A stretch of 64,000 nucleotides of DNA from Sarcocystis neurona (taxonomy: Eukaryota; Apicomplexa; Conoidasida; Eucoccidiorida; Sarcocystidae). Positions 4,870-61,976 of the stretch are shown here, piece by piece. The notes under the pieces are model-generated. The model made no database searches, had not been told where the DNA came from, and was given only the letters and a program-made list of their open reading frames with translations. The number at the start of each line of letters is the position of its first letter. The first letter of the stretch is position 1. The DNA is taken from positions 2,287,369 through 2,351,368 of the forward strand of contig KL647307.1 of assembly GCA_000727475.1 (NCBI GenBank), given 5' to 3'. The position numbers were made by a program, and so were the translations under genes.

Positions 4870-5382
4870 ATGGGGAAAGTTCCAACTACCATCTCCACCG
4901 GCGCACTCATGCTCCCGCGCAAGACCGCCGACTGCAGTAGACGTGTGACACAGGCAACAGCAGCAGCAGGTCCTGATGAGGACCCACCGGCAGCGTCCGT
5001 TCCTGCGGCAGCCGAAACGGCAGCCTGTCGGACGGGAGGACAAGAACCGGCACTCAATGAATTTTCCCCCCTGTCTAGTGCAACGACAGCAGAAGCTGCA
5101 GCTGCGTCTTCCTGTCCAGGCGAACCGGCAGCAGCAGTGCCGTTTCTACATGCTTCCTTGCAGAATTGGGACAAGGAAAGTTACGCTATGGAAGACTCTC
5201 AAGGTTCCAGCACGGGGGAGGCCGAAAGCGAGAGAGCGGAGATTGCGACCTGCCCAGAGGAAGAAGAGGAAGATGAGCCAGGGTCCGCTGAAGATGTGTT
5301 GAGCGCTTTTGTTGCGAACCATGGCGGACTGCACCTCTTGCGAAGAATCCTCGTAGCAAATAACGGAAATGCTGCTGTACGG
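4870..5382 (+). CDS. ACC: ACC exon 1: N-terminal leader and start of biotin carboxylase
   Basis: 171 codons. The ATG at 4870 is the first after an in-frame TGA at 4846-4848 and has G at +4, which is why it was chosen; an upstream exon spliced into this one is still possible. Residues 1-150 are Ala/Pro/Glu-rich with an acidic EEEEEDEP stretch and show no convincing signal peptide. The last 20 codons ([16 protein letters not shown]) are the canonical start of the biotin carboxylase N-terminal subdomain. The donor is GTGAGC after the Arg codon, phase 0, and joins directly to [10 protein letters not shown] of exon 2, matching the usual AVKCIRSIRRWAY of the family. Confidence 0.85.
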
Positions 5383-8300
5383 GTGAGCGCAGGCTCTCTT
5401 TGCCTCGGCAACTTTGTGCTCGACATTCTTGTCTTGTGCTTGAGAAAAAGGGCGGGACGCGCCGGGACAGCAGTGCCTCTTTTGCTTCACGACGTGAGAG
5501 ACAGCCGGTGCCGCTGCGTCTCTGGGCTTTTTTCGTTTTACACGAGGAGAAGCAGCACCGCTGACCTTAACGAGGCGTAGAGGCAGTCGCTGCGCCTCTC
5601 TTATGTCGATAGTAAAGAACGCGACAAAATCTGCTGCTGCTGCTCTCTTACGATTGTCTACTCGATAAAGGCAGAAGACAGGAGAGGTCCCTCTGCTTGT
5701 CGATCGAAGATATATACGCAGTCGACGAGCGCTGCACTGCACTATCTGGTGAAAACATTGCTTGCAGCTGTTCCACAGAAGTCAACTGCTCCTGCTGCAG
5801 GCTGCATGGCCTGGTCCGTGCGGTCGTGGGTCACATGCCTCCTGACATGACGGGGGGAGAGTAGACGAACGCTGCACCTGCTGCCCTGCGGGGTCCGCTG
5901 TGTTGTCCAGGCGATGCAAGACATGTAGCTGTCAAGCGCCACGCATACGTTGGACGAGGTGCAGCTGGGGCAGTCTTCGTGCAGAGCAGCGGAGAGCAGC
6001 AGTGCCGTAGGATCTTTGCACCGCACTGCAGTGAACTTCCTTCTCTGTGTGCCTGGGCTAACACACACGTACACAGGAAGACTACGTAGGTGTGAACCAA
6101 CTTCTGTGCAACTGCCTTCTTGTGTTGTACGTCTGACAACCGTAGCCGGCATGTGACACGAGCAGCGGTCCCAAGGGTCCGCACTTTTTGGTGCAAGAGG
6201 GCTCTCGTGACCCTTAAGCTGCTCCTCCTGCTACTAGCGGGACACGCGCTGGGCAGCCGGCGGCCGTGACTGACTTATCGCAGATGCCGCGGGTATGTGC
6301 GATGTCCGGCCAGACGCTCCGTAAAGCGTGACAATCCCCCGGCAGGTGGTGAAATACTGCTGCAGGCTGGCCACAGACGGCGCGTACTCGCACGTACACA
6401 CATACACACACACAAACCGAGCGATTCATGGCTATAAAGACGTCGCTTAATATGTACCGTTATCTGTCATGAATGGTTAGCTGCACGCGTCCACGCACGT
6501 GCGTCTGCACACGTATTTGCGTCGCTATCTTCCGCGCATTTCCAGCATTGCTGCTCCTGGCACGCGTGTATTCGTCCGCAACTCCGTACATGCTTGTATG
6601 TTTCCCCCAGCACGTGTGTAAGAGTTCTGCTGTTGACAGCAGTCGCTTGTGCATCCTCCCATACACGCAGCCGCGACAATGCTGTCCGCAGGCGCATGGG
6701 GCAGGAAACATCGCCTTTGAGCGCAGCGCCTCGCCTGCTTTCTTCTGTTGGATCTGCGAGTCTTCGGCGATTATTCCCCTCCGGCGTATCAATTTGGGGT
6801 ACCTTGTACGCATGCCCGCATTGCACGCTTTGTGGCATAGTCTTCGAGCTCCCTCTCACTCTGTAGGATAGACGTGGGTGCCGTCCGAGAAGGCTTTCTT
6901 TTCAAATAGGCACTCGAAAGTCTTCCTCTTCTCCCCGCACATTTGTATAAAATATCGGAAGTGCTCCTAGTGCGTAGGTATGTGGTGCCGTTGACCGCAT
7001 CAACGCTGGTGCACTTGTAGATACAGGACGTGGAGGCTGTCCGCCGACCGGCGTCGAACAGCCGTGGTTGCTTGCCACCTGCATTGCACATCGCAATGGC
7101 GGGGTTGCCTGCTTAATTTTTCGCACAGGTGGCTGTGCGCATGCAGGCAAGTGCCTCGGCCATATTTTTAGTCTCTGTTGCACGTGGCAGTACGCGCCAG
7201 GCGAGCTGGACAGCCTCCTGGGGTCGTCGAGCTCGCGATTCCTCTCTCTGCAAAGACTGCTCCTGCCGCTCTGTGGCTGTTGTGACTGCTTCTGACGCAG
7301 GTGGATGCAGCTGCTGTAAATCCGACTGATGCTCCTGTAGCTCTGATGCTGCTGCTCCTGCTGCGGTAACGCCTGCTGCTGCTGGTGCTGCTGCAGTGCC
7401 TCGGGTTACTGCTGCTGCGAGTGTGCCCTCTGTCGCTGCTGCGGGAGGATGCCTTCGCTTCCTGCCGCTGCCGCAGAAAGGCGTGCTCCGCTGCTGCAAG
7501 TCGTGTTGCTGCCGAGCTGCTGGGGCTTCTCCCACGCCGTCTCTCTTCCCTATAAAGTGCTGTGGCTAGTGACACTGCGTCATCTCGTGTGGCTTTGCTT
7601 GCAGTGCATCCGCAGCATGCGGCACTGGGCGTACGAAGCCCTGGGTGATAGCAAAGCCCTGGAGTTCGTCGTTCTCGCGACCCCAGATGACATTGACGCC
7701 AACGCGGAATTTATAGCGGAAGCAGATTTCTACGTGGAGGTGCCACCGGGCCCAAATTCAAATAACTACGCAAATCTCCACTTGATTGTACAGGTAGGGT
7801 ACCCCCTGCCCACAAAGAGTGCAGGTCGGGGAACCAGCAGCTCTCGTTCGACATATATATGTATACATATAAATATGTCTCTGTACGCACGGATGTGTGC
7901 GCGTGGACGAAGCGTCTGCGTCGTGTGTGTATGTGTCAGCTGCCTGTTAACGAATTTTTGCCTCGTCGAGTACAAGCAGCACAACGCCGTGCCTGCGAAC
8001 ATCCATCTGCACAGAGATGTGTGCCAACGAATTACACGCTCGCACGCAAACCTGCATATCTCTCTCGCTATGTATACATTGTTTGTGGGCTTATTTTCTT
8101 TCGTGCTGTCCCGCTTTCTCTGGAGAAACACGCATTCTTGGGGATGTGTGCGTGTCCCCGTGTGGCAGGCGTTAATATTGTCTGTTTGTGTGAAGTTTAT
8201 GTTGGGAGAGTCGACCGCTGCTGCAGAAGTCGATTTCTTGGCCGCTACTACCGTCATCTTCGAATCTGCGCTTGTGAGGGAAGACGCAAGAGTCGATCTG

Positions 8301-11300
8301 CCGCTGCCTACGTGAGTGTGTCGGAACGCCAAAGGGTAGGTAACGTTGGCCCACACAAATGTGTAGCGGACACTATATATCTGTCTCTCTTCCTGTCCCT
8401 CTTCCTACGCTAAGGCCATACGTATCTGTACACGTGTCTCGCCTCTCTGGAGAGAGACACGGACATACAGAGAGAGATATTTTGCAGCAAGACTCCTCAG
8501 GGTGGCGGACTGTGTATGTGTAGTCGCCAAGTGCAAATATATATTTAACTCCGTCTCCACGGTGCCTCTGCGCCTTGCAAGCTGCGGAAGTTTCACGAGG
8601 AAGTGGTCTTCTGCGGGAACAAAGGAGACAAAAAGGCTGGACCTGACGGCCGAAGCCGGTACGCAGCCGGTGCGTGCCCATCCCTGTTCGTCTTCGTGGA
8701 GTCGTGTCTCCCCAGGGGACTGCACGAGCAAATTTGTATTTCTCCTTTGTCTTCACCGCTGGCATCTGCCCCACACGTGCATCGCTGGCCTGCTCGTGGG
8801 GTGGTGTGGCGTACCGCGTGCTGCTGGTCTTGTGCGTGAAGGAGGAGAAGCGTCCGAGCAGTTTACATGCGTGTGGTCCGGCAGAGAAATCCGGTCTGCC
8901 GTCTACGACGCGTGTGTGTATCTCCTGCCGCTGGTGCCGCTAGACGTCGAACAGCCGCTGCGCTGCTGCTTGTCCGCGCGGGACTGCGCGGTCCAGAGCT
9001 TTTTCCTGCTGTTGCTTGTCCTCGTGCGTATCGCTGATGCGCTGCTGCAGGTCGTCACGAAAAAACGTCTGCTGCTGTCGCGCCATCTGCATTATCCTGC
9101 TGCTGGTCACCGCCAACAGGCGGTGTCGCCTCACACTTGCCTCCCCTGTGCTGCCTGCTGCTCTTTGTCTTTGCTGCATCTGATGCAGCGTGGGCGGTGT
9201 ATGGCGCGGTTTCTGATGCCCTTTGCAAGTGATGTTGCTGGACGCTTGCACCCTACTGTCTTGCTGCTGCGACTCTTGCTGTCTTGCGGCTGCGGCTCTT
9301 CCTGTCTTGTTGCTGCGACTCTCGCTGTCTTGTTGCTGCGACTCTTGCTCTCTTGCTGCTGCTGCTGCTGTTGTCCTGCTGCTGCACCTGCTGTTGTCCT
9401 GGTGTTGTGCCTTGCTGCTGGTGCTAGTGCGGCTGCTGTTGCGTTGCTGCACTTTCGTCGAAGCTGCAGCTTCGGCGCGTTGTCGCCGCGCGTCCTGCGG
9501 CTCCTCGTGGCCGTGTCTCTCCTATCCTGCTGTAACGCCTCCGACCGCGTCTTCCTCTCCTTCTTGTTCATCCGCACATTCTCTTTCTTCCTCTCTTTCA
9601 TCTTCTCAGTTTCTTGCTTGTTTCTCTTTATCATCTTCTGTCTCCTGTTCTTCGTCTTCTTCCTCTTTTATGCTTCTGCTCCAGCTGGTCCTTTCGCTTT
9701 CCTGTCTCGTCTCCTCCTGCGTCTCCTTCCCCCCCGTGTCCTCACGCGCTCGACTTCCTCTTTTCTCCTTCTCCTCTTCCTCTTCGCATGCGTCTGGACG
9801 CAGACGGCGGAGACGTACGAGTGCGACGCAGTGTGGCCGGGGTGGGGTCACGCGTCAGAGAACCACCGCCTGCCTGCGCTGTTGCAGTCTCTGAAGAGAA
9901 AAGTTGTATGGATCGGCCCATCGCCGCAAGCGATGCTTGCCCTAGGCGACAAAATAGGATCTTCTATTATTGCTCAGTCTGTCAACGTCCCCTGCGTCCC
10001 CTGGTCAGGTAGGCATCACTGCCAGGAACGCGGCCGGATAGATTTCTTGCCTTGCCGCAGCAGCTGCTGCTCCTGCTGCTCTTCTCCTGCTGCTGGTGCT
10101 GTTGCTGCTCTCTGAGACCGCGCTGTCTTCGGCCTATCTACTTAAGCAGGCAGCGGGGGGGCGGATGCTTTTCACCGCTGAAGAGTCTATGTTTCTCCTG
10201 AGGCAGCTCCCTTGCAACAGAGCAGCCCACTCCGTTCCAGCAACGCGGGAAGCACTCGTTTTCCGTTCTTCCACCTCCTCCTCCCTACGTCTCCTCTCGC
10301 TGGTAGTCGTCGCGGTGCAGAAGTCCTCGTCCCTCGCCTCTCGACTTCTGCGGGCCCGTCGACCTCTCGGTTACCTCCCGTAACATAGCATACACACAAA
10401 AAGAGCTGTGACTGTGTCGCTGCTGTCGCTGTCTCTGCTGCTCGTACTCCGACTGCTGCGGACGGCAACGTCGTCAGTTGGCGTCGCCGTCAACCGCAGG
10501 GCTCCCCTTCCTTCCGACATATGTCGCAGCTGTTTTCGCCGGTGCGGCGCGACGCAGACGGCCCTCGCGTCGTTCCACAGACACATGCACACACGTACGC
10601 ATATCGATATCTTCGCAAACCCACGCTCACAGGCAGTTCCCACCCCACGCGGGCCCTCGCTACCTCCACGTCTTGCGTGAATGGTCCTCTAAAAACGGGA
10701 CGCAGATACGTGTACATCGACTAGTCTGCCTGCGCACATGCCTACACCTGCTTGCTACATAGAAAACCCCCATACGCTTATCTATAAATATAAATAATGT
10801 TGTACATCACAGGGAGCTGAAACACGAGGATGTCCTTCGCCGACCTTCTAAGCACGCCGGAGGCAATGGGTCTTGCATCCATCCCAACGCCGCTGTTAGT
10901 TCGCAGGACGACTTCTTTTTATGGGGCCGCGTTCTGGTGTCTAGACACCCGAAAATGCAGGCCTTTCAGTCCCACCACGTGCGGCACGAAAGCAATATAA
11001 ACGGAGACGTCCGGCTATTTCTCTCTCCCCTGTAGCGCCTTCCATCTCCTTGGTCGACACGCTGAATAACGAAGGGAGCTCTGCAGATACATCCCCTGCA
11101 ACGCAGGAACATACCGACGCGCATTCGTGTGCTGAAGAGAGAGAGCGAAAAAGACAGACAGACAGGTGGAAATGTATGATGTGTAAACGCCTGTTCACAC
11201 ATTCACAGTCCTATGCACACACGTTTGAGCGAGAAAGAGAAGAGGTGAGCACGCACCTCTCTCTATATATTTATATATGTGGGTATGGTAGACTTCTAGA

Positions 11301-13678: not shown

Positions 13679-13713
<35 letters not shown>

Positions 13714-49315: not shown

Positions 49316-49353
<38 letters not shown>

Positions 49354-55300: not shown

Positions 55301-57770
55301 AGAAACCGCAGACAGAGGACCTCAAAGAAACGGAGAAGCACGAGAAGGAGCAGCTGCCTGCCTGTTTTGCTGCGCCGAACACCATCTGTGCTCCTCGCGC
55401 GCACTCAAGCGGTGGTGTGCTGCTGCTGCTGCTGCTTCCTCGTCCTTCTCGTGCTGCGGTGTTGCTTCTTCTCTACGCTGCAGAGCAGCTCTTGCCGAGC
55501 GGCCACGCGCATTCTCTACCCATTGCCTATCTCTCTACACCTACAAACGTTCATATATACATATATATTATTGCATATATGTATATGTATGTGTTGCCGT
55601 GGTCTGGCCAAGGTACGCGTCTATGTGACTACCTGTCTGCCAGGGCCAGTGTTGGTGGGCAGGCGTGTAGATCCTACTACCTAAATATTTGCAGAGTCTT
55701 ATTACTTGCCGAATATCTGTCTCTATGCGTCTCTACGATTCAAAGTCAGTTCCACATCTCCGCAGCTACTACATATATATATATATATATATATACGTGC
55801 ACTTGTGTGTATATATATATATATATAGTNNNNNNNNNNNNNNNNNNNNNNNNNNNNNNNNNNNNNNNNNNNNNNNNNNNNNNNNNNNNNNNNNNNNNNN
55901 NNNNNNNNNNNNNNNNNNNNNNNNNNNNNNNNNNNNNNNNNNNNNNNNNNNNNNNNNNNNNNNNNNNNNNNNNNNNNNNNNNNNNNNNNNNNNNNNNNNN
56001 NNNNNNNNNNNNNNNNNNNNNNNNNNNNNNNNNNNNNNNNNNNNNNNNNNNNNNNNNNNNNNNNNNNNNNNNNNNNNNNNNNNNNNNNNNNNNNNNNNNN
56101 NNNNNNNNNNNNNNNNNNNNNNNNNNNNNNNNNNNNNNNNNNNNNNNNNNNNNNNNNNNNNNNNNNNNNNNNNNNNNNNNNNNNNNNNNNNNNNNNNNNN
56201 NNNNNNNNNNNNNNNNNNNNNNNNNNNNNNNNNNNNNNNNNNNNNNNNNNNNNNNNNNNNNNNNNNNNNNNNNNNNNNNNNNNNNNNNNNNNNNNNNNNN
56301 NNNNNNNNNNNNNNNNNNNNNNNNNNNNNNNNNNNNNNNNNNNNNNNNNNNNNNNNNNNNNNNNNNNNNNNNNNNNNNNNNNNNNGTTACCTACACTCTC
56401 CGCAGCTACTACATATATATATATATATATATATATACGTGCACTTGTGTGTATATATATATATATATATAGGTACATCCGCAGGACGTAGTACAGTCTA
56501 GAATCTGACCTCTGTACACATATCCTTACATATTATCAAACATTTACACCAATGCAGTTGGCGGTGCTGCACTACGTACGTAGGACTATCCGTGGACTTC
56601 TCGTCTGTACATATACATATATTTGTGTACGTGTGTGGCTATATACACATCAGTTCATATATTTAAACGAAGGAGATGGCTACTTGTCAGGCATTTCTGC
56701 TGGCGTTGCCGCTACTGGCGGTAGTGCTGCTGCTACTGTTTCTCCGGCTGCAGTTGGTGCTGCTGCTGCTCTTCTTGCTGCTGTCGCCGTTGCTCTTGAG
56801 CTGCTGTTGTTGCGTTTGCTGCTATAACCTGCTGCGCCTGCTGCTACACTCCTGCTGCTCTTCCGGCTCTTGTTGCGTTTGCTGCTACACTCCTGCTGCT
56901 CTTCCGGCTCTTGCTGCGTTGGCTGCTAACTCCTGCTGCGCTGGCTGCTACACTCCTGCTGCTCTTCGTGCGGCTGTTGCGGGTGGCAACTTCCGCTGCT
57001 GGCGCGGGGCGTGCAGGGCGGTCGGAGGGGCGGTGCGCGCTGCCGCTGCGGTTCGTCGCGGATAACCCGACGGGGCAGGCACTGCGCCTGCGGAAGTTTG
57101 TGGAAGTGACGAACCCGACGACTGGCCAGCTAATCTTCTCCTCCATCGACAGCAGAGGCGTGCTCTGCTCTTCCTCTTCTTCTTCTGCCTCGTCTTGCTT
57201 CGCGTCGTCGGCTCCGCCGTCCACGTCTTCCTGCAGCAGCGGCGAAGGCTCTGGGGTGGGTGGCTTTCCTTTCAACAGCAGCAGCAGCAGAGGAACAGCA
57301 ACTACGACAGTCGCTGCAACGACGGAACCGAGCGAAGACAAAAAGTGTGGGGCCACGGCAGGAGGGACCGTCTTCGCTGCTTCTTCTTCGTTTTCTTCGT
57401 CTTCTTCGATGTCTGCAAAACCTTCCGACGCCGCGGATTTAGACGGGCGACCGGTGCTGCTGCCGCATCCGCTGCCGACGGCGCTGGACGTGCGTCGGGC
57501 CCGCGCCTTCAACGTGTCGACGGTCTTCATCTACGACTTCCCGGTGGGGTTTCCTTTCTTGCTCGCGCTGCTGCTGCTGCTTGCCTCTCGAAGGAAGAGA
57601 CAGCAGCAAAAGAAACTCTAGAGAAAGCGGCACAGGTAGACTAGAAAAGGGTGCATCTCAACAGAGTCCTCGTGGGGTCTATACACGGGACAGCAGCCAC
57701 GCAGCGGAGGGAAAGCAATCTCGCTGGGTGGGCCACGTGTACCCACCTCCTCCCTGCCATACACATATAC

Positions 57771-57803
<33 letters not shown>

Positions 57804-60800
57804 TATGTATGGATACGTATGTGTTAAGGAGAGCGCCAGAGTGAGAGACGCCAAGTCCCTGCTTCAGACTGAAGAGAGGACAACGGAGGTACTTGGGGGG
57901 AGGGGTGGTTTTCACTCGGACGTTCTTCAGCGAGCTGCAGCAGCTTCCACACAGCTGCTGAATAAATTTTCGTATGTCACGGTGTTCTGTCTGCATGCGC
58001 GACCCGCCACACTGTAGAGCGCTCTGCTTCTCGGTTACCCGGGTACCATCCACATACACACATGTATATTAAATTTTCCTACTCGTATACATATATATGT
58101 ATGTTTGCATGCATATGTATGCATATATTGGGGGATTCACTATTGCAGTACATTATAGATACGTACACATATCACTGCGTAGATGCACACCTACCCACAC
58201 TTTTATATATATGTATGTTGGGGAACAAGGACTTGAGTTGATCATATATATGTATGTGGATATGTGTAGACGCATGCATGTTTAGGTACGGCGGGTGGAG
58301 AAGGTTGATGACATCTTGCTGCAGCAGCAACGTCTTTCTGAGCAGCCCTGCAGATCGTCGCGCTGCGATTGAGCTGCTGCCGCTGGTGCAGGGGACTGCT
58401 GCTGCTCTCGCGTGTGCACCTCCTGCTGCTGCTGTTGCAAAGCCTGCCGGTGCTGCGGCTGTTGTTATCAACTTTGCCGCTGCTGCTGCTGTTGCTGCTT
58501 CGTGGCACGCCGTTGCTGCTGGGAGACGCCGTGAGGCGGCTGCTGCTGCTGCCACGTGTGTGGGGTTGCTGCTGCGGGCTGCTGGGTGTTGTCTCCGCAC
58601 AGGATTTGTTTGAAGAGGCGGTTCGGAAGCAGTGGAAGCGTTGTCCCAAATATATTCTCCCAGCGTCTCCCGAGCAGCACGTACGTCTCGTTTTTGCTGC
58701 GGTGTGCGCTGCCTTCCACAATGGACGAGGAGACGGAGACGGCAGAAGCAGGCCAGCGACAGCGAGCCGGTGGAGACGAGACGGCAACAGCAGCGGCGTG
58801 TCTAGCAAGCGCCCCTGCAGCACGTCTCCCCACGCCGCTGTCGCCCGGTTTCTTCGCACTTTCAAAGGGGGACAATTTCTTGAAGAAGACTTCACGCGTA
58901 CCTCTCTGCATGCGTCCCTGCAAACACACACATATACCCACCTACTATCATATATATATATATATATATATATAGATGTAAAAAGAGGAAGAGGCAGAGA
59001 GAGACAGCTGAGCGGTACGTCGTGGGTCAACCAGACATGTAGAGATTTATGCGCGGCACAAAAAACGTGGGACTAGCGAAGTGATGGTCAAAGCGCGGCT
59101 AGCTATGACTACTTAGCAGCACATACGAAGCGCAGTATGTCACTTGCACCTGTCACTGCCAACTTCGGATAGTAGAGGTTTTTCGCTCGAAAAACCTCGC
59201 ATGCAGCCCTCGCGGCTTATTCTGAGCGACATATATATATATATTACGTATAAGCCGACTCATATATATATATATATATGTATATGTATATATGTGGAGA
59301 AAGAGTGAAAGAGGGAGGCAGAAGAGGAGAGGAAGAGAAGAGAATTTGGAGTTTCTCAACGAGAAGTGGACCGCAGTTCTGCTGCTGCGTCCGCCTCGCT
59401 GTCTGCTTCGCTACAAGGGGTCCTGCTGCTGGTGTCGCTTCCCCTGCTGCTGGTGTCGCTTCCCCTGCTGCTGGTGTTGCTTCCCCTGCTGCTGCTGTTG
59501 CTTCCCCTGCTGCTGCTGTTGCTTCCCTTGCTGCTGCTGTTGCTTCCCCTGCTGCTGGTGTTGCTTCCCCTGCTGCCGGTGTTGCTTCCCTTGCTGCTGG
59601 TGTTGCTTCCCCTGTTGCTGCGTCTCTTGCTCTTGCTGCTGCTGCTGCTTCTTTTCCTGTCGCTGGGGCTGCTGCTCCTTCCCAGCTGTTGTTGCCGCTT
59701 CTTTGTCTCTTGCTGCTGCAGCTGCTTCTTCAGCTGCTGGTGGTGAAGTCTTGAGTTTTGCTGCTGCTGCGGCTGCTGCTTTTGCAGGCAGCAGGGCGAC
59801 CAGTCTTCGACGGGAGACAAGACCGCTGCGCCACAGCAAATACGTTTCTGCCGGAGCGGGTGCGTCTACTTCTTTGCTGCTGATGCTGCTCACGCATCTC
59901 ATTCACCCCAGACCCTGCCCTGCTGCCGCTGCTGCTGCTGCGACGCCTGCTGCTGCTGCTGCGACGCCTGCTGCTGCTGCTGCGACGCCTGCTGCTGCTG
60001 CTGCGACGCCTGCTGCTGCTGCTGCGACGCCTGCTGCTGCTGGTGCTCCTCCTCCTCCTCTTCGAGCTCGTTCTCCTCCTGCATTTTCTGCCGCGGCTGC
60101 TCCTGCTGTATGTTGCTGCTGCGGCCTCGCTGCTGCTGCCGTGTCTTGCTGCTGTTGCCGCTGTCTTGCTGCTGGTGCTGCTGTTGCGCTGCTTCTGTTG
60201 CCCTGCGGGTCGTGCTGTCGTTCTTGCTGCTGCGCCGTCTCTCTTCTCTCCGCGCGTACCCTTCGCTGTTTCTTTTCTTCTCTTCTTCTCATTCTTTCTT
60301 GTTTTCGTCTTCTCCGTTTCATCTCTTCGTCGCCTTCTCTTCCTCTTCTTCGAGTTGTCCCCCCGGTTGCCTCTCTGTCGCTGCTGCTCCATCTCTCTCC
60401 TGCTGCCGTTTCTGCTGCTGCGCGTCTCTCCTTCTTCTGCTTCTTCCACCTGCCCGAGAGAAACGCGGTCCATCTGCTGCTGTTCTTCTCTTCTCCTCCT
60501 CTCCTTCCCCCCCCCTTCGCTCCGTACTTCCTGCGTCTACCGGATTTCCTCGTATTAAAAGGCTTCTTCGCCTTTTCGTCCCTTTGTTCTTCTTCTTTCA
60601 CCTTCTTCTCTCTCTTCCTACTGCAGGTATTCGAGGCGACAGAACTGCGGCTGAATAGTCGCGGAGAGCTAGAGGAAGTTCACCGGGAAGCCGGTCTAAA
60701 CGAGTGTGGCATGGTGGCCTGGCGAGTGACGATGTATACCCCCGAATTCCCGAAGGGCAGGCGCATTATCCTCATCGGTGAGGCCAAAGTTCTGTCCTTT

Positions 60801-61312
60801 CCTTTTCCTTCGCCTTTCTCTCGGCCCTTCCCTGCTTTCCCTTCTTTATCCCTGCCTCTGCTCTTCGTCCCGCTTCCTGCTTCCTAACCACTCTTCTTCT
60901 TGCTGGTCCTGCCCCTCTCCCTGCTGCTGCTGCTCCTCTCCCTGCTGCTGCTGCTCCTCTGCCGGCTACTGCTGCTCCTCTGCCGGCTACTGCTGTTGCT
61001 CCTCTCCCTGATGCTGCTGCTCCTCCGCCGGCTACTGCTGTTGCTCCTCTCCTGCTGCTGCTCCTCTCCCTGATGCTGCTGTTGCTCCTTTCCTGCTGCT
61101 ACTGCTAATCCTCTGCGTCCTGCTGTTGCTGCTTCTCATCTACTTCCTGCTGCTGCATCTGTTCTTCTTCTCCCTGCTGCTGCTTCTCCTCTCGCTCGTT
61201 GCTTCCTCTCAATTCAACTGCAAACACATTTGTAGGTATGCGTATGTGTATATGCGTGTGTACATATATATATGTATGTATGGGTATACATATGTATAAG
61301 TATATATCTGCA

Positions 61313-61344
<32 letters not shown>

Positions 61345-61976
61345 GATATATGCATATATTTAGACATACGTGTACATATATATATGTATGTCTACATATA
61401 TGTGTATACATATATACATCTATATGTGTGTACGCATATGTATATGTGCATATGTGCGTCTCTCTCTTCCTCTCTTCTCTCTCTCTCCCTATATATATAT
61501 ATATATATGTATATACACATATATATCGGCATATATATATATGTGTGTCTAAAGATATATATATATATATGTATATGTGTGTAGGTATATGTACATGTAT
61601 ATATCTGCATCTCTCTCCGTCTCTCTCTATATATACATGTATACACACATATATTTTGACATGTGCATATATACATATATATATATTTATATGTGTGTGC
61701 ATATATGTATATGTATGCATCTCTCTCTTTCCCCTCTCTATCTCTCTAGATATATGTGTATGTATATCTGTACGTGTAAATATATATATATATGTATATG
61801 TATGTCTAAATATATGTATGTATGTGTTTGTACATGTGTATTTCTGATTTCTCTCTTTTTTGGCGGATATGGTTTAATGAATGAACACAGGAAACGACGT
61901 CACTTTTCAAATGGGGACGTTCGGCGTGACGGAAGATTTACTCTTCCAACGGGCGTCAGAAATCGCTCGGAAGGAG
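4870..61976 (+). CDS. ACC: Acetyl-CoA carboxylase, multidomain eukaryotic type (26 exons seen, 3' end outside window)
   Basis: Biotin- and ATP-dependent carboxylation of acetyl-CoA to malonyl-CoA, the committed step of fatty-acid synthesis or elongation. The joined exons give 4,143 residues in one frame. Order: leader (about 1-150); biotin carboxylase starting at [14 protein letters not shown] (about 158-171), with the ATP-grasp loop [10 protein letters not shown] and the motif [14 protein letters not shown]-to-BCCP linker; biotin carrier domain with biotinyl Lys about 871 in [12 protein letters not shown] central domain (about 1000-4060); and the start of the carboxyltransferase ([11 protein letters not shown]). 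Usual ACCs are 2,200-2,500 residues, so this is about twice normal size, through Ala/Gln/Ser/Gly-rich insertions in the central domain. Family identity is certain from several independent motifs in the right order; exact ends of the repeat-rich exons are less sure. The apicoplast or cytosolic paralogue is not decided. Confidence 0.95.
5383..7604 (+). other. ACC intron 1
   Basis: GTGAGC...GCAG. The first half is mixed sequence with a CA-rich stretch near 6395-6417. From about 7240 to 7500 it becomes CTG/GCT-rich, leaving long read-through frames on both strands. The acceptor is preceded by a pyrimidine-rich stretch (GGCTTTGCTTGCAG). No gene or RNA is recognisable inside. Confidence 0.8.
7605..7793 (+). 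CDS. ACC: ACC exon 2: biotin carboxylase N-terminal subdomain
   Basis: 63 codons, phase 0 at both ends. It encodes [15 protein letters not shown], then [20 protein letters not shown] and [14 protein letters not shown]. These match the conserved ACC/biotin carboxylase segment (VMATPEDLKANAEYIRMAD and NNNNYANVDLIV in other eukaryotes). No low-complexity insertion is present, so this catalytic segment is under normal constraint. Confidence 0.95.
7794..9803 (+). other. ACC intron 2
   Basis: GTAGGG...GCAG. It contains short TATATA stretches (about 7850-7880 and 8535), a CTG-rich block at about 9230-9450 with repeated TTGCTGCGACTCTTGCTGTC-like units, and a CT-rich tract at about 9540-9780. A long plus-strand open frame (8502-10115) is intron read-through joined to exon 3 and is not a separate protein. 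Confidence 0.8.
9804..10008 (+). CDS. ACC: ACC exon 3: biotin carboxylase, [12 protein letters not shown] segment
   Basis: 205 nt, enters in phase 0 and leaves in phase 1. It encodes [20 protein letters not shown], then [18 protein letters not shown], and ends VPCVPWSG. This is the strongly conserved loop before the ATP-grasp domain ([26 protein letters not shown] in other ACCs). Acceptor CTGGACGCAG, donor GTAGGC. Confidence 0.95.
10009..11621 (+). other. ACC intron 3
   Basis: GTAGGC...CGCAG. It has a CTG-rich start (10060-10110), mixed sequence in the middle, short TATATATT blocks at about 11258-11325, and a CT-rich approach to the acceptor (TCTCCTGTTCTCCCGCAG). No domain is recognisable. 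Confidence 0.75.
11622..11716 (+). CDS. ACC: ACC exon 4: biotin carboxylase spacer before ATP-grasp
   Basis: 95 nt, phase 1 to phase 0. It completes the Gly of PWSG and encodes [20 protein letters not shown] and [11 protein letters not shown], the position of the variable segment that leads to ACVxDVEEGLEVA in other ACCs. The donor GTAAGT is the strongest of the gene. The exon is supported by frame, splice sites and position more than by strong similarity. Confidence 0.85.
11717..12107 (+). other. ACC intron 4
   Basis: A short intron of 391 bp, GTAAGT...GTGCAG, made almost wholly of CTG/GCT-rich sequence with repeated TGCTGCCGGTGCT-like units. It is nearly free of stops on the plus strand, so it appears as coding in several frames at once. 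That is a composition effect. Confidence 0.85.
12108..12286 (+). CDS. ACC: ACC exon 5: ATP-grasp glycine loop
   Basis: 179 nt, phase 0 to phase 2. It encodes [20 protein letters not shown] (ATP-binding Lys and Gly-rich loop) and continues to [18 protein letters not shown]. This is the diagnostic ATP-grasp segment of biotin carboxylases ([19 protein letters not shown] in most ACCs). The final AG pairs with the A that opens exon 6 to make the Arg of RHLEVQ. Confidence 0.97.
12287..14724 (+). other. ACC intron 5
   Basis: GTACAG...TACAG. TATATA and TATATG stretches lie at about 12440-12900, with an (AT)14 run at 13682-13709. CT-rich sequence lies between 13260 and 13540, and more TATATG around 14180-14500. 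Small Tyr/Ile/Cys/Thr-rich frames here come from the TATATG repeats. Confidence 0.8.
13682..13709. repeat. (AT)14 microsatellite
   Basis: Uninterrupted AT dinucleotides within ACC intron 5. One of many such runs in the introns and one of the longest that is perfect. Confidence 0.9.
14725..14899 (+). CDS. ACC: ACC exon 6: RHLEVQ segment of biotin carboxylase
   Basis: 175 nt, phase 2 to phase 0. It encodes [20 protein letters not shown], then [17 protein letters not shown] and [17 protein letters not shown] and [15 protein letters not shown] are hallmarks of ACC biotin carboxylase, lining the bicarbonate and ATP site. Position x is usually Asn or His and is Cys here. The donor GTGAGT lies in an Ala run; reading on past it would leave the family alignment. 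Confidence 0.95.
14900..16076 (+). other. ACC intron 6
   Basis: GTGAGT...TGTAG. A short coding-like start is followed by dense TATATG, CGTATA and ACATAT low complexity from about 15030 to 15950, including an uninterrupted TA run near 15675-15695. No gene is recognisable. Confidence 0.8.
16077..16226 (+). CDS. ACC: ACC exon 7: biotin carboxylase catalytic loop
   Basis: 50 codons, phase 0 at both ends. It encodes [35 protein letters not shown] and FNLPAAQLQ. Metal- and ATP-binding Glu, Asn, Arg, Gln and Glu of the E-x-N-x-R-x-Q-x-E core are intact. Two prolines that are almost invariant in the family (NPRLQ and EHP) are Ala and Val here. The donor is GC rather than GT (CAG|GCAAGT), with a perfect consensus otherwise. 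The acceptor is a TAG. Confidence 0.95.
16227..18613 (+). other. ACC intron 7 (GC-AG type)
   Basis: GCAAGT...GAGCAG. It contains a run of about 13 G near 16319-16332, a CAG-rich tandem block at 16979-17092, TATATA near 17690-17730 and 18035-18055, and CTG-rich sequence at 18290-18560. No gene is recognisable. Confidence 0.85.
16979..17092. repeat. CAG-rich tandem repeat, 33/30-bp unit
   Basis: Three copies of a unit made of TCCGCGGCAGCAGCATTG followed by a CAG run start at 16998, 17031 and 17061, so periods are 33 and 30. The change is in the number of CAG triplets. It lies in intron 7. Confidence 0.85.
18614..18739 (+). CDS. ACC: ACC exon 8: end of biotin carboxylase ATP-grasp region
   Basis: 42 codons, phase 0 at both ends. 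It encodes [20 protein letters not shown] and [14 protein letters not shown]. It continues LPAAQLQ of exon 7 (IAMGIPL..I.DIR in other ACCs) and includes the conserved Arg of ARITAE that contacts the carboxylated intermediate in bacterial biotin carboxylase. Acceptor GAGCAG, donor GTCAGT. Confidence 0.94.
18820..19600. repeat. TATGTATATG low-complexity block
   Basis: About 780 bp of alternating purine-pyrimidine sequence (TATATG, TGTATA, TACGTA) with hardly any unique sequence. Similar blocks recur in nearly every large intron, for example at 15030-15950, 27780-27930, 30210-31060, 32280-32660, 34000-34980, 40320-40520, 43200-43510 and 61230-61840. Confidence 0.85.
20041..20147. repeat. 60-bp tandem duplication, CTG-rich
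   Basis: The 47 bases from 20041 recur exactly at 20101, a period of 60. It holds TGCTGCTGCGACACAGTGCT. It lies in intron 8 just before the exon 9 acceptor. Confidence 0.9.
20350..20436 (+). CDS. ACC: ACC exon 9: biotin carboxylase C-terminal subdomain
   Basis: 29 codons, phase 0. It encodes [20 protein letters not shown], then WGYFSIGSK, matching GFKPSSGxVxELNFRSSxNVWGYFSV of other ACCs. Acceptor TCGCCGCAG and donor GTACGG. The Trp-Gly-Tyr-Phe-Ser core is specific to eukaryotic ACCs. Confidence 0.95.
20437..21265 (+). other. ACC intron 9
   Basis: GTACGG...CTACAG. CT-rich at 20460-20700 and TATATG-rich at 20860-21130. Nothing gene-like. Confidence 0.85.
21266..21322 (+). CDS. ACC: ACC exon 10: short biotin carboxylase exon
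   Basis: Only 19 codons, phase 0. It encodes [19 protein letters not shown], matching GxIHEFADSQFGHIFAxGE of the family. Acceptor TTGCTACAG, donor GTAACC. It is one of the smallest exons and is followed by the largest intron. Confidence 0.94.
22738..22855. repeat. 18-bp CAG-type minisatellite
   Basis: About six degenerate copies of GCAGGTGCAACAGCAGCA in intron 10, each a multiple of three long, so read-through gives Ala/Gly/Thr runs. Confidence 0.8.
24211..24403. repeat. 15-bp tandem array
   Basis: Twelve full head-to-tail copies of TATAATATCTCTCTA from 24211 to 24390, then a 13-bp copy and degenerate derivatives to about 24470. Copies 3, 8 and 11 carry the same T-to-C change (TATAATACC). 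The shared variant suggests spread of blocks by unequal exchange or slippage. It lies in intron 10. Confidence 0.95.
25612..25727 (+). CDS. ACC: ACC exon 11: biotin carboxylase C-terminal helix region
   Basis: 116 nt, phase 0 to phase 2. It encodes [20 protein letters not shown] and [18 protein letters not shown], matching [34 protein letters not shown]. Donor CT|GTAAAA. A second copy of the donor lies 12 nt downstream but would include an in-frame TAA, so the first is used in the model. Confidence 0.95.
25728..26878 (+). other. ACC intron 11
   Basis: GTAAAA...TTGCAG. It is mostly CT-rich. TTCATCTTCTTCGTCG units at 25988-26090 form a 24-bp repeat, and related CTTCATCTTC units recur to about 26370. 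Read-through gives long Ser runs. No gene is recognisable. Confidence 0.85.
25988..26090. repeat. 24-bp CT-rich minisatellite
   Basis: Tandem units at 26017, 26041 and 26065, each starting TTCATCTTCTTCGTCGTC and ending TGCCCC in complete copies. It lies in intron 11; the plus-strand reading is poly-Ser with Ala-Pro spacers. Confidence 0.85.
26879..27035 (+). CDS. ACC: ACC exon 12: BC-BCCP linker (NxxTTWLE)
   Basis: 157 nt, phase 2 to phase 0. It encodes [20 protein letters not shown], then [20 protein letters not shown] and EAEFIKK. This matches the conserved Asn-x-x-Thr-x-Trp-Leu-Asp (NxITTGWLD) that follows the biotin carboxylase domain. Donor GTGAGT. Confidence 0.93.
27036..28170 (+). other. 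ACC intron 12
   Basis: GTGAGT...GGCAG. It holds the 74-bp tandem palindrome array (27224-27457), a TATATG block at 27780-27930 and a G-run near 28088-28099. Nothing gene-like. Confidence 0.85.
27224..27457. repeat. 74-bp tandem repeat carrying a 14-bp near-palindrome
   Basis: Four copies of GGTGTACRTACACC at 27224, 27298, 27372 and 27444, so spacings are 74, 74 and 72. The first, GGTGTACGTACACC, is a perfect palindrome; the others have a 6-bp stem around CA. The spacer (CGTGTCCCGTGTCTCGTCTC and following) is well kept in the first two copies and drifts in the third. An isolated copy in reverse orientation is at 36218-36231. Confidence 0.93.
28171..28635 (+). CDS. ACC: ACC exon 13: BC-CT interaction (BT) region with poly-Gly insertion
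   Basis: 155 codons, phase 0. It encodes [20 protein letters not shown], then a stretch of about 50 residues that is mostly Gly and Ala (28335-28490), then [20 protein letters not shown] and FSKEADPTQ. The flanks match LEKGQVL..., SDGGLLV..GGKSHTIYWKEE and ENDPTQL of other ACCs. The Gly-rich insertion replaces the usual loop before SDGG and is the first large insertion in the protein. Confidence 0.93.
28636..29648 (+). other. ACC intron 13
   Basis: GTAACC...TGGCAG. It is almost entirely CTG/GCT-rich (GCTGCTGTTCTTC-like units) and free of stops on the plus strand for hundreds of bases, so exons 13 and 14 look continuous in other frames. That is not supported by homology. Confidence 0.85.
29649..29798 (+). 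CDS. ACC: ACC exon 14: biotin carboxyl carrier domain
   Basis: 50 codons, phase 0. It encodes [40 protein letters not shown] and GGKLMHAM. The biotinylated Lys is in the MKM motif, codon 29745-29747, about residue 871. This matches [34 protein letters not shown]. Donor GTAGGC. Confidence 0.97.
29799..33227 (+). other. ACC intron 14
   Basis: GTAGGC...TGGCAG. It begins with a 33-bp direct duplication (29804-29869). TATATG and CTCTCT blocks cover about 29900-31200, with more TATATG at 31670-31770 and 32280-32660, then CT-rich and GCA-rich sequence to the acceptor. No gene is seen in 3.4 kb. Confidence 0.85.
29804..29869. repeat. 33-bp exact tandem duplication
   Basis: Bases 29804-29836 are repeated exactly at 29837-29869, five bases after the donor of exon 14. 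Each copy starts CCCACCACAACCCC and ends TCTTTTCAGGAAGA, an acceptor-like sequence. Reading through from exon 14 gives the peptide repeat [11 protein letters not shown] twice. Confidence 0.95.
33228..33792 (+). CDS. ACC: ACC exon 15: end of BCCP and start of central domain
   Basis: 565 nt, phase 0 to phase 1. It encodes [18 protein letters not shown] and [10 protein letters not shown], matching G..V.AGDILATLELDDPS and PF.G.LP of the family. Then comes a Ser/Ala/Gly/Gln insertion with [19 protein letters not shown] (about 33400-33450), and then [20 protein letters not shown] and [18 protein letters not shown], the conserved central-domain helices. Donor GTATGT. Confidence 0.93.
33793..36675 (+). 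other. ACC intron 15
   Basis: GTATGT...GCTGCAG. TATATG-rich at about 33950-34980, mixed sequence 35000-35500, CTG-rich 35590-36130, a lone GGTGTATGTACACC palindrome at 36218, TATATA near 36393, and CTG-rich up to the acceptor. No gene is recognisable. Confidence 0.8.
36218..36231 (-). repeat. Isolated copy of the 14-bp near-palindrome
   Basis: GGTGTATGTACACC is the exact reverse complement of the element in the 74-bp array of intron 12. It is given as minus strand relative to that array. The surrounding sequence does not match the 74-bp unit over any long stretch. Confidence 0.75.
36676..37035 (+). CDS. ACC: ACC exon 16: central domain, repeat-rich
   Basis: 360 nt, phase 1 in and phase 1 out. 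It starts [20 protein letters not shown], which continues AAL of exon 15 in the manner of SRLPxKLExxIxxLL in other ACCs, then runs into a Gln/Ala/Gly-rich insertion ([30 protein letters not shown]) and ends [10 protein letters not shown]. The acceptor is GTTGCTGCAG. Only the first 25 codons are supported by similarity; the rest by frame and junction phase. Confidence 0.8.
37036..37634 (+). other. ACC intron 16
   Basis: GTACGT...CTGCTGCAG, 599 bp. It ends in a 15-bp repeat array (37537-37634) whose units include the acceptor itself, so three equivalent acceptors lie 15 bp apart. Confidence 0.75.
37537..37634. repeat. 15-bp TGCTGCTGCTGCAGG-type array spanning the exon 17 acceptor
   Basis: About six to seven copies of a 15-bp unit. 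The last three each contain TGCTGCTGCTGCAG followed by GT or GA context, giving CAG acceptors ending at 37604, 37619 and 37634. All three keep the same reading frame. The last one was used for the exon model. Confidence 0.88.
37635..38176 (+). CDS. ACC: ACC exon 17: central domain
   Basis: 542 nt, phase 1 to phase 0. It encodes [20 protein letters not shown], then Ala/Ser-rich sequence, [20 protein letters not shown] and [13 protein letters not shown]. The last segment is the conserved end (xLxxYLxVExxF) of this central-domain helix and joins to VEELFEE of exon 18. The start could be 15 or 30 nt earlier because of the tandem acceptors. Donor GTGAGC. Confidence 0.82.
38177..39637 (+). other. 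ACC intron 17
   Basis: GTGAGC...AAACAG. It opens with 150 bp of AACAGCAGC-type repeat (38180-38330) that stays open in the exon 17 frame as Ser/Asn runs. Later parts are CT-rich (38640-38820 and 39240-39580), with a TATATA run at 39049-39067. No gene is recognisable. Confidence 0.8.
39638..39806 (+). CDS. ACC: ACC exon 18: central domain
   Basis: 169 nt, phase 0 to phase 1. It encodes [20 protein letters not shown], then [20 protein letters not shown] and [10 protein letters not shown]. This matches the family pattern VExxFxxxxxxxVLxxLR...VxxxVLSHxxxxxKNxLLxxLL. It is one of the few repeat-free central-domain exons. Acceptor AAAAAACAG is unusually purine-rich; donor GTATGT. Confidence 0.92.
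39807..41346 (+). other. ACC intron 18
   Basis: GTATGT...TTTGCAG. TATATG-rich at 39990-40540 with many ACGTATATATACGT palindromes, mixed at 40550-40980, CTG- and CT-rich at 41000-41340. No gene is recognisable. Confidence 0.8.
41347..42931 (+). CDS. ACC: ACC exon 19: central domain with a 380-residue low-complexity insertion
   Basis: 1,585 nt, phase 1 to phase 2. It starts [20 protein letters not shown] and continues to about LRRVADYV, then gives about 380 residues of Ala/Ser/Cys/Gln/Gly-rich sequence, then [20 protein letters not shown] and [14 protein letters not shown]. The end matches the ACC pattern LxxFFxHPxxxVRxxALEVYVRR. The interior has no family similarity; an unseen intron in the Cys/Ser-rich part (about 41600-42750) cannot be excluded, but the frame is open throughout. 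Confidence 0.8.
42932..45163 (+). other. ACC intron 19
   Basis: GTATAG...GTGTCAG. TATATG at 43200-43510, mixed at 43560-43960, and CTG-rich 18-bp repeats at 44042-44140 with further CTG-rich sequence to 45160. A long plus-strand open frame begins at 44628 and runs into exon 20, but the part before 45164 has no ACC similarity. Confidence 0.75.
44042..44140. repeat. 18-bp CTG-type minisatellite
   Basis: About five copies of TGCTGCTCTCTGCTGCGC, with CTCTTT variants in the middle copies. It lies in intron 19. Confidence 0.88.
45164..47907 (+). CDS. ACC: ACC exon 20: central domain, 900 residues mostly low complexity
   Basis: 2,744 nt, phase 2 to phase 1. It starts [20 protein letters not shown], continuing VYV of exon 19 (VYVRRAYRAY in others). 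The interior is Ala/Ser/Gln/Thr-rich with homopolymer runs, including a block of CAG repeats (47410-47575) read as [16 protein letters not shown]. Near-unique islands include [20 protein letters not shown] (about 45795-45865). It ends [20 protein letters not shown], matching GVMVAFxxLxxFxxxFxxVL of the family. Donor GTGAGT. Both ends are supported; the middle could hide introns. Confidence 0.82.
47410..47575 (+). repeat. CAG-repeat block encoding poly-Gln in exon 20
   Basis: Repeats of CAGCAGCAGCAG separated by short GTAGC, GCAGCGTCC and GTAGCCTTG spacers, about 21-24 bp per unit. It is read in the Gln frame as QQQQQ blocks separated by VA, AAS or VAL. The repeat is in coding frame and every unit is a multiple of three. 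Confidence 0.9.
47908..50547 (+). other. ACC intron 20
   Basis: GTGAGT...GCTGCAG. It contains a 20-bp purine-rich minisatellite (about 48410-48770), TATATG blocks at 49000-49380, and dense CTG-rich sequence from 49640 to 50540. No gene is recognisable. Confidence 0.82.
48410..48770. repeat. 20-bp purine-rich minisatellite
   Basis: About 18 degenerate head-to-tail copies. The clearest, from 48641 to 48740, follow CAGGGACGACGTTAAAGCAG or CAGGGAAGGGGATAAAGCAG. The period of 20 is not a multiple of three, unlike most arrays in this gene, which fits its being purely intronic. Confidence 0.9.
50548..50654 (+). CDS. ACC: ACC exon 21: short central-domain exon
   Basis: 107 nt, phase 1 to phase 0. 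It completes DSLLE from exon 20 and encodes [20 protein letters not shown] and [11 protein letters not shown]. The hydrophobic LLQLFIIDL strand sits where other ACCs have xxNILNIAIxD. The donor GTACGC is chosen because it keeps frame with exon 22; the alternative is read-through into CTG repeats. Confidence 0.72.
50655..51974 (+). other. ACC intron 21
   Basis: GTACGC...CATGCAG. It is almost all CTG/GCT-rich, with Cys/Leu/Ala read-through frames on the plus strand. The repeat-derived frame opening at 51678 runs into exon 22, but its first 300 nt have no family similarity. Confidence 0.7.
51975..54825 (+). CDS. ACC: ACC exon 22: largest central-domain exon
   Basis: 2,851 nt, phase 0 to phase 1. 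Conserved islands in family order: [20 protein letters not shown] (about 52020-52085), [14 protein letters not shown] (52930-52980, the FPRYFTFRS element), [20 protein letters not shown] then [10 protein letters not shown] (53525-53668, the YRHxEPALAFQLEL...HVYxA element), RFFVRVLL (53911-53940), [20 protein letters not shown] (54180-54240) and [20 protein letters not shown] (54745-54810). Between them lie Ala/Ser/Gln/Cys-rich insertions. Introns could hide in 52090-52920, where CTG/TGC runs give poly-Cys; a GTGAGA at 52792 is one possible donor. Donor of the exon GTTCGT. Confidence 0.78.
54826..57016 (+). other. ACC intron 22, contains the assembly gap
   Basis: GTTCGT...GTGCAG. Mixed and CTG-rich sequence to 55500, TATATA around the gap, the N run 55830-56385, then CTG-rich repeats with TGCTGCTACACTCCTGCTGC units (56820-56960). 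Sequence flanking the gap is duplicated. Confidence 0.7.
55830..56385. other. Assembly gap (556 N)
   Basis: An uninterrupted run of N. Both edges carry the same 65-75 bp segment (CTCCGCAGCTACTACATATA, a TA run, then TACGTGCACTTGTGTG and another TA run), at about 55757-55828 on the left and 56396-56471 on the right. Confidence 1.
57017..57543 (+). CDS. ACC: ACC exon 23: end of central domain
   Basis: 527 nt, phase 1 to phase 0. It encodes [39 protein letters not shown], a Ser-rich insertion of about 90 residues, then [20 protein letters not shown] and VFIYDFP. This matches LRxxxxNxSGYVVKxExYxEV and TPYPxxxxLQxKRxxAxxxGTTYVYDFPELF. The donor GTGGGG after the Pro of YDFP joins exactly to DLFEEAV of exon 24. 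Acceptor GTGCAG at 57016 is the best in phase; the next AG at 57026 would also keep frame with a different phase only if exon 22 ended elsewhere. Confidence 0.9.
57544..58602 (+). other. ACC intron 23
   Basis: GTGGGG...GCACAG. A brief CTG-rich start, TATATA at 57770-57810, mixed at 57820-58060, TATATG at 58080-58260, and CTG-rich at 58320-58560. No gene is recognisable. Confidence 0.85.
58603..58680 (+). CDS. ACC: ACC exon 24: short exon after YDFP
   Basis: 26 codons, phase 0. It encodes [20 protein letters not shown] and SPEQH. Joined to exon 23 it gives [15 protein letters not shown], matching YDFPELFRxALxxxW of other ACCs. Acceptor TCCGCACAG, donor GTACGT. Confidence 0.92.
59175..59198. 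other. Perfect 11-bp inverted repeat (hairpin)
   Basis: GAGGTTTTTCG, two bases (CT), then CGAAAAACCTC, the exact reverse complement. It lies in one of the few non-repetitive stretches of intron 24. There is no known match by eye and no evidence of a separate transcript. Confidence 0.85.
59421..59625. repeat. 21-bp CTG-type minisatellite
   Basis: Nine to ten copies at a strict 21-bp period, each with CTTCCC followed by CTGCTGCTG and a GTGTTG or CTGTTG ending. CTTCCC recurs at 59438, 59459, 59480, 59501 and so on. It stays open in several plus- and minus-strand frames, so coding potential is an artefact of the period. Confidence 0.93.
59928..60045. repeat. 21-bp CTG-CGACGCC minisatellite
   Basis: Five copies with CGACGCC at 59941, 59962, 59983, 60004 and 60025, separated by runs of CTG. 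A second, independent 21-bp array in the same intron. Confidence 0.93.
60627..60777 (+). CDS. ACC: ACC exon 25: junction of central and carboxyltransferase domains
   Basis: 151 nt, phase 0 to phase 1. It encodes [20 protein letters not shown], then [20 protein letters not shown] and [11 protein letters not shown]. This matches ELVLDxxGxLxEVxRPPGxNDIGMVAWxMTLKTPEYPxGRxIIVIANDIT of the family, the entry to the carboxyltransferase N-subdomain. Donor GTGAGG. Confidence 0.97.
60778..61890 (+). other. ACC intron 25
   Basis: GTGAGG...ACACAG. CTCTCCCTGCTGCTGCTGCTC repeats at about 60910-61190, then a TATATG block at 61230-61840. Nothing gene-like. Confidence 0.87.
61891..61976 (+). CDS. ACC: ACC exon 26: start of carboxyltransferase domain (last exon in window)
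   Basis: 86 nt, phase 1 to phase 0. It encodes [20 protein letters not shown] and RASEIARKE, matching ANDITFKIGSFGPxEDxLFxKASELARxxG of other ACCs. The next expected segment (IPRIYISANSGARIG) is not in the remaining 2 kb, so the gene continues beyond 64000. Donor GAG|GTAGGA. Confidence 0.95.

What the first reader, a model, noticed from the sequence alone, without database searches (positions are those of the whole stretch)
4870..61976. An acetyl-CoA carboxylase about twice the usual size, spread over more than 57 kb
Seen: 26 exons join in one frame to 4,143 codons, and the carboxyltransferase domain has only just begun. Known: eukaryotic ACCs are usually 2,200-2,500 residues. Inferred: the full protein would be roughly 4,700-4,900 residues if the remaining CT domain is of normal length. 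About 22% of the gene span is exon. I know of no ACC this long, but cannot check.
Basis: partly seen in the sequence, partly recalled or inferred. Interest (0 to 1): 0.75.

Follow-up and report, generated by a model that had tools for sequence, protein, structure and literature searches.

The report
Oversized acetyl-CoA carboxylase in a coccidian
This looks like the gene for the cytosol-type acetyl-CoA carboxylase (the enzyme that makes the building block for fatty acids) of a Toxoplasma-related parasite, grown to about twice the usual size by simple repeats inserted at ten places outside the catalytic domains, a larger case of something its relatives already show.

Summary
The joined protein matches biotin carboxylase, BT, biotinyl and ACC_central families. 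It is an ACC2-type enzyme of a coccidian, probably sarcocystid: 84.7% identical to Neospora over 596 biotin-carboxylase residues; an ACC1-type gene lies elsewhere in the genome. Carboxyltransferase exons continue beyond the window to extended position 81,007; the last 175 Neospora residues were not found, and an 8,230-base gap follows. Estimated length: about 4,800 residues. Ten repeat-rich segments total 2,464 residues here, 980 in Neospora, 166 in a yeast protein. They look translated: 0 stops in 2,463 in-frame codons against 51 in 4,904 off frame, and CTG-type runs mostly read alanine. So it is real and very long, but coccidian ACC2s already reach about 3,400 residues (T. gondii 365 kDa, PMC9947163). 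No RNA or protein evidence was available. Interest: moderate.

The parts
4870..5382 (+). exon 1: variable N-terminus and start of biotin carboxylase
   Evidence: the open frame begins at 4849, just after a stop; true start not proven
7605..7793 (+). exon 2: biotin carboxylase N domain
9804..10008 (+). exon 3: biotin carboxylase N domain
11622..11716 (+). exon 4: biotin carboxylase
12108..12286 (+). exon 5: ATP-grasp part of biotin carboxylase (GGGGKGIR loop)
14725..14899 (+). exon 6: ATP-grasp part
16077..16226 (+). exon 7: ATP-grasp part ([10 protein letters not shown]); followed by a GC-AG intron
18614..18739 (+). exon 8: biotin carboxylase
20350..20436 (+). exon 9: biotin carboxylase C domain
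21266..21322 (+). exon 10: biotin carboxylase C domain
25612..25727 (+). exon 11: biotin carboxylase C domain
26879..27035 (+). exon 12: BT domain
28171..28635 (+). exon 13: BT domain with an in-frame Gly-rich insert at 28333-28509
29649..29798 (+). exon 14: biotinyl domain with EIMKM motif (lysine residue 871)
33228..33792 (+). exon 15: end of biotinyl domain, insert 33321-33623, start of central region
36676..37035 (+). exon 16: central region, insert 36723-37034
37635..38176 (+). exon 17: central region, insert 37637-37906; acceptor uncertain (several in phase)
39638..39806 (+). exon 18: ACC_central
41347..42931 (+). exon 19: ACC_central with insert 41586-42839 (418 codons)
45164..47907 (+). 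exon 20: ACC_central with inserts 45234-45776 and 45864-47720 (181 and 619 codons)
50548..50654 (+). exon 21: ACC_central, matches the Neospora [11 protein letters not shown] segment; weak donor
51975..54825 (+). exon 22: ACC_central with inserts 52062-53525, 53667-54188, 54321-54737
57017..57543 (+). exon 23: end of central region, insert 57166-57435
58603..58680 (+). exon 24: between central region and carboxyltransferase
60627..60777 (+). exon 25: contains the start of the carboxyltransferase domain
61891..61976 (+). exon 26: carboxyltransferase domain; next exon lies at extended position 65307, beyond the window

Best explanation
The locus is the gene for the single-chain, cytosol-type acetyl-CoA carboxylase (ACC2) of a sarcocystid coccidian, probably of the genus Sarcocystis. 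The enzyme should work as other eukaryotic ACCs do (family knowledge): biotin carboxylase loads CO2 onto the biotinylated lysine of the EIMKM motif, and the carboxyltransferase moves it to acetyl-CoA to give malonyl-CoA. Shown here: catalytic and biotinyl domains conserved and collinear with coccidian ACC2s. Also shown: ten segments with about 1,480 more residues in all than in Neospora. At each of the ten sites the three apicomplexan ACC2s compared are also longer than a yeast and a fish ACC. One site is in BT and nine are in or next to the central scaffold region. Inferred: the segments grew by slippage of CAG/CTG-type repeats that also fill the introns; they are translated and kept in frame; they hang out as disordered loops that the scaffold tolerates; they have no required function.
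For: 26 exons, 4,143 codons, no stop. Pfam on the joined protein: Biotin_carb_N, CPSase_L_D2, Biotin_carb_C, ACCA_BT, Biotin_lipoyl, and ACC_central in 3 stretches, all above cut-off. Best two listed hits Cystoisospora suis ACC2 and Neospora NCLIV_061720. Biotin carboxylase 84-85% identical to these and to a partial T. gondii ACC2, but 46% to Besnoitia ACC1. A separate ACC1-type gene at G000:C4:4,063,975-4,093,663. Segment totals 2,464 (window), 1,128 (C. suis), 980 (Neospora), 611 (Cryptosporidium), 200 (fish), 166 (yeast) at the same ten sites (sums). Stops inside the inserts: 0 of 2,463 in-frame codons against 51 of 4,904 in the two other frames; 25.6 expected, chance 7e-12 if codons are independent. 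CTG-type runs of 9 nt or more read Ala 22, Cys 6, Leu 2 in the inserts, against 71/55/73 in introns in an arbitrary frame (Fisher p = 1e-4). Exons 19, 20 and 22 carry conserved islands on both sides of the repeats in one frame. Taxon: 20 SAG/SRS matches, none for the Eimeria antigen family, genome 123 Mb against 128 Mb for S. neurona (PMC5354109).
Against: No RNA or protein evidence. Splice sites were chosen with a generic consensus, partly by eye, and openness of the frame was itself one of my criteria, so the stop test is less independent than its figure suggests. CAG-type runs show no clear phase preference (Gln 20, Ala 15, Ser 9 in inserts; 25, 15, 16 in introns). In-frame splice pairs with good scores exist in exon 20 (longest would remove 312 aa) and exon 22 (206 aa), so optional introns cannot be excluded there. 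The 3' end of the gene was not found. ACC_central in the own-genome six-frame search rang once, at the ACC1 locus and not here; it does match here once exons are joined. Tandem-repeat periods did not separate exons from introns convincingly. Long segments also occur at some of these sites outside ACC2s: 210 and 150 residues at two sites of P0011, an unnamed metagenome protein, and 82 at one site of Besnoitia ACC1. The species is inferred; the negative for the Eimeria family rang in no control genome either.
Confidence: 0.85

Rival explanations
1. The repeat-rich parts of exons 20 and 22 contain introns that this model reads through, so the protein is nearer 3,400-3,700 residues like other coccidian ACC2s.
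For: In-frame splice pairs with good scores exist: exon 20 up to 936 nt, exon 22 up to 618 nt. Neospora and Cystoisospora have 168 and 203 residues where exon 20 has 619.
Against: No stop in 2,463 in-frame insert codons against 51 of 4,904 off frame; CTG-type runs favour the alanine phase. The 418-codon insert of exon 19 holds no donor scoring 1 or more, whereas 23 of 25 GT donors of the model do. Removing both longest good candidates (518 residues) still leaves about 4,290 in all; several introns within one segment were not modelled.
Confidence: 0.12
2. The locus is a decayed or unused copy (pseudogene).
For: Very long repeat tracts and long introns.
Against: 26 exons with an open frame; biotin-carboxylase and biotinyl islands 83-85% identical to Neospora and the carboxyltransferase start 72%; biotin motif intact; 7 of 10 downstream stretches 75-96% identical to Neospora, the other three 51-63%.
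Confidence: 0.03
3. It is the apicoplast-type ACC1.
For: T. gondii has both an apicoplast ACC1 and a cytosolic ACC2 (PMC9947163).
Against: 46% identity to Besnoitia ACC1 against 84-85% to ACC2s; a separate ACC1-type gene is on contig C4. No tree was built.
Confidence: 0.01

Closest known systems
Neospora caninum NCLIV_061720 (ACC2 type, 3,385 aa, P0002)
   Same: Eleven collinear islands, 47-85% identical; same ten segment sites.
   Different: Segment total 980 residues against 2,464.
Cystoisospora suis ACC2 (3,465 aa, partial, P0001)
   Same: Same islands, 49-84% identical.
   Different: Segment total 1,128 residues.
Toxoplasma gondii ACC2 (365 kDa, cytosol; PMC9947163, passage seen)
   Same: Biotin carboxylase 84.7% identical to the partial record P0121.
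   Different: Smaller; the partial record (1,418 aa) was not used for the segment table.
Human and yeast ACC (PDB 6g2d, 5csk)
   Same: Neospora ACC2 matches both by sequence; domain order as recalled.
   Different: A yeast and a fish ACC have 166 and 200 residues in the ten segments.
[quoted passage not shown]
   Same: CAG repeats read as Ala, Gln, Ser runs, reported not to lie within functional domains.
   Different: Described for Eimeria (30% of E. falciformis proteins, 57% of E. tenella genes); this genome looks sarcocystid.

Membership tests
Eukaryotic multidomain (homomeric) ACC | Biotin carboxylase domain | tested here: met
   PF00289, PF02786, PF02785 above cut-off
Eukaryotic multidomain (homomeric) ACC | Biotinyl domain with MKM lysine | tested here: met
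   PF00364 at 844-903; EIMKM aligned to relatives
Eukaryotic multidomain (homomeric) ACC | ACC_central region | tested here: met
   PF08326, 156.9 bits, 3 stretches; single exons did not ring
Eukaryotic multidomain (homomeric) ACC | Carboxyltransferase domain in the same chain | tested here: met
   Begins in exons 25-26; matches to Neospora up to residue 3210 of 3385 lie in order downstream on the same contig (tblastn); PF01039 was not listed for the window part alone
Eukaryotic multidomain (homomeric) ACC | Biotinylated, active enzyme | not testable with these tools
   Needs protein
Coccidian ACC2 (cytosolic) subfamily | Closer to ACC2 than to ACC1 | tested here: met
   84-85% against 46% in biotin carboxylase; ACC1-type gene found separately; no tree was built
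Coccidian ACC2 (cytosolic) subfamily | Cytosolic location | not testable with these tools
   Inferred from T. gondii (PMC9947163)
Genus Sarcocystis (host organism) | SRS/SAG antigens, genome near 114-128 Mb | tested here: inconclusive
   20 PF04092 matches, 0 PF11054 matches (PF11054 rang in no control genome either); 122,989,501 bases; rRNA search not answered

The most novel reading that the evidence does not exclude
This is among the longest ACCs, and the ten segments are a natural insertion-tolerance map of the ACC scaffold that has been filled step by step in apicomplexan ACC2s; the disordered segments may have gained a role of their own (spacing, assembly or regulation of the enzyme) instead of being passive.
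Probability: 0.12. Interest if true: 0.55.

Novelty: new member of a known kind. Interest (0 to 1): 0.33.

Why it matters
It shows how far a multidomain enzyme can be stretched without touching its catalytic domains: 2,464 residues in ten segments, against 166 and 200 in a yeast and a fish protein. The sites are also longer in the three other apicomplexan ACC2s compared than in those two, so they mark tolerant positions of the ACC chain. It also warns that such genes may be missed or broken by annotation: none of the 120 hits listed in each of the three protein searches bears a Sarcocystis or Eimeria name.

Tried and rejected
Eimeria as the source: my first guess from the CAG repeats. Dropped after the surface-antigen families pointed to a sarcocystid and the genome proved to be 123 Mb.

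Exon 21 as one block from 51868: replaced by 50548-50654 plus 51975-54825 after alignment. Searches used the 25-exon model. The stop count was repeated with 26 exons: 0 of 2,463 again, and 51 of 4,904 instead of 4,905. The alignment behind the segment table was not repeated; the island and gap limits in the window protein are unchanged.

Repeat period as a test of coding: 10 of 13 exon arrays and 47 of 116 intron arrays have periods divisible by three, but among GC-rich arrays it is 9 of 12 against 32 of 51. Not used. CAG-type run phases were also not informative.

Relatives in virus and prokaryote contigs: pattern matches but no relative confirmed. Other genes in the window: the longest ORFs of the minus strand and those upstream of 4870 were looked at only by eye and not scanned.

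Literature: PMC9947163, PMC10707475, PMC8785600, PMC4287421, PMC6381282, PMC5354109, PMC12132954 and PMC5484099 were seen as passages only. PMC10707475 names an E. tenella acetyl-CoA carboxylase (ETH_00009260); its type and length are not in the passages seen. The S. neurona genome paper is not held. The listings of searches for Eimeria or Toxoplasma ACC (in one search, 20 of 60 papers listed) and for low-complexity insertions in Sarcocystis (8 of 68 listed) showed no title on the length of this ACC2. The domain order of human ACC, used at first to choose ORFs, was recalled.

Full report
What was checked. I located conserved ACC segments in the plus-strand translation, enumerated donor and acceptor pairs with matching phase and joined the best. 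Alignment to Neospora and Cystoisospora ACC2 supported the exon 20 acceptor and showed that one small exon had been missed. It lies at 50548-50654, and exon 22 then starts at a strong acceptor at 51975. The final model has 26 exons, 12,429 nt, 4,143 codons, no stop, and covers 21.8% of 4870-61976.

What it is. The joined protein matches Biotin_carb_N, CPSase_L_D2, Biotin_carb_C, ACCA_BT, Biotin_lipoyl and, in three stretches, ACC_central, all above the curated cut-offs. Of 497 proteins with E <= 0.001 among 1,988 scored candidates (120 listed), the best two are Cystoisospora suis ACC2 and a Neospora protein. Biotin carboxylase identity is 84.7% to Neospora and Toxoplasma ACC2, 84.2% to Cystoisospora, 54% to Cryptosporidium and 46% to Besnoitia ACC1. 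A second, ACC1-type gene lies on contig C4 of the same genome, matching Besnoitia ACC1 from residue 308 to 2,548 in 15 tblastn segments. The window gene is therefore the ACC2-type member.

Beyond the window. The window is G000:C20:2287369-2351368. In the next 38.5 kb Neospora residues 2722-3210 are matched in order by ten stretches up to extended position 81,007: seven at 75-96% identity and three at 51-63%. The last 175 residues were not found; an 8,230-base run of N lies at 83,381-91,610. Not all exon ends downstream were resolved. Adding the Neospora tail of 663 residues gives about 4,800.

Where the extra length is. Between eleven conserved islands lie ten segments. Their totals are 2,464 residues in the window, 1,128 in C. 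suis, 980 in Neospora, 611 in Cryptosporidium, 244 in Dictyostelium, 200 in a fish and 166 in a yeast protein (sums, one alignment of ten proteins made with the 25-exon model). Long segments are not confined to ACC2s: an unnamed metagenome protein (P0011) has 210 and 150 residues at two sites and Besnoitia ACC1 has 82 at one. Island lengths are within five residues of Neospora's except the last, which is shorter here (141 against 169). By a simple entropy measure 64% of the inserts and 7% of the islands are low complexity. The 596-residue biotin carboxylase island aligns to Neospora without a gap, and no large insert was seen in the carboxyltransferase stretches.

Are the inserts coding? In the inserts the used frame has 0 stops in 2,463 codons and the other two have 21 and 30 in 2,452 each; 25.6 would be expected, chance 7e-12 if codons are independent. 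The figure is generous, because an open frame was also a criterion in building the model. Perfect CTG-type runs of at least 9 nt read Ala 22, Cys 6, Leu 2 in the inserts, against Ala 71, Cys 55, Leu 73 in introns in an arbitrary frame (Fisher p = 1e-4). CAG-type runs show no clear difference (Gln 20, Ala 15, Ser 9 against 25, 15, 16). Islands on both sides of the repeats in exons 19, 20 and 22 share one frame. At donor score >= 2 and acceptor score >= 0 (18 of 25 GT donors and 23 of 25 acceptors of the model pass), no in-frame hidden intron of 60 nt or more is possible in exon 19, and the longest would remove 312 residues in exon 20 and 206 in exon 22. Even then the protein would be about 4,290 residues. 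With very loose thresholds the longest single candidates remove up to 92, 571, 404 and 147 residues from four segments, leaving about 3,590; several introns within one segment were not modelled. These are arguments from sequence; no transcript was seen.

Which organism. CAG repeats suggested Eimeria, but the genome has 20 matches to the SAG/SRS family and none to the Eimeria antigen family, a negative that no control genome backs. That SRS proteins mark sarcocystids is recalled, with support from PMC5354109 (passages). At 122,989,501 bases in 74 contigs the genome resembles S. neurona (128 Mb, PMC5354109) and S. calchasi (113.89 Mb in 75 contigs, PMC12132954). Sarcocystis is likely, not proven.

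What is known. T. gondii ACC2 is given as a 365 kDa cytosolic protein (PMC9947163, passage). Homopolymeric repeats from CAG in coding sequence, reported not to lie within functional domains, are described for Eimeria (PMC4287421, passages). So the kind of expansion is known and the coccidian ACC2 was already long; this gene is a further step. I found no paper on this gene in the searches named, but the library holds only openly licensed papers and the listings were partial.

How it likely works. As other eukaryotic ACCs: carboxylation of the EIMKM biotin and transfer to acetyl-CoA to give malonyl-CoA (family knowledge). The inserts are most simply slippage products tolerated in loops of the central scaffold (inference); nothing tested here gives them a function.

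Noticed in passing
G000:C4:15764-22528 (minus strand), outside the window: Five SAG/SRS domain matches fall in one open frame listed as 7,628 aa long, which suggests a giant multi-domain surface protein.
   Followed up: no
16227-18613: Intron 7 starts with GCAAGT, a GC-AG intron; the other introns of the model are GT-AG.
   Followed up: partly
29804-29870: Two perfect 33-base copies in intron 14, each with an acceptor-like TCTTTTCAG.
   Followed up: no
G000:C4:4063975-4093663, outside the window: ACC1-type gene of the same organism; its central part also shows stretches with weak or no match, perhaps inserts.
   Followed up: partly
55830-56385: A 556-base assembly gap inside intron 22, with similar-looking sequence on both sides (by eye), so a local assembly problem is possible.
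   Followed up: no
introns throughout 5383-61890: Introns are long (391 to 4,289 bases in the 25-exon list) and rich in CTG-type arrays and AT-rich microsatellites.
   Followed up: partly
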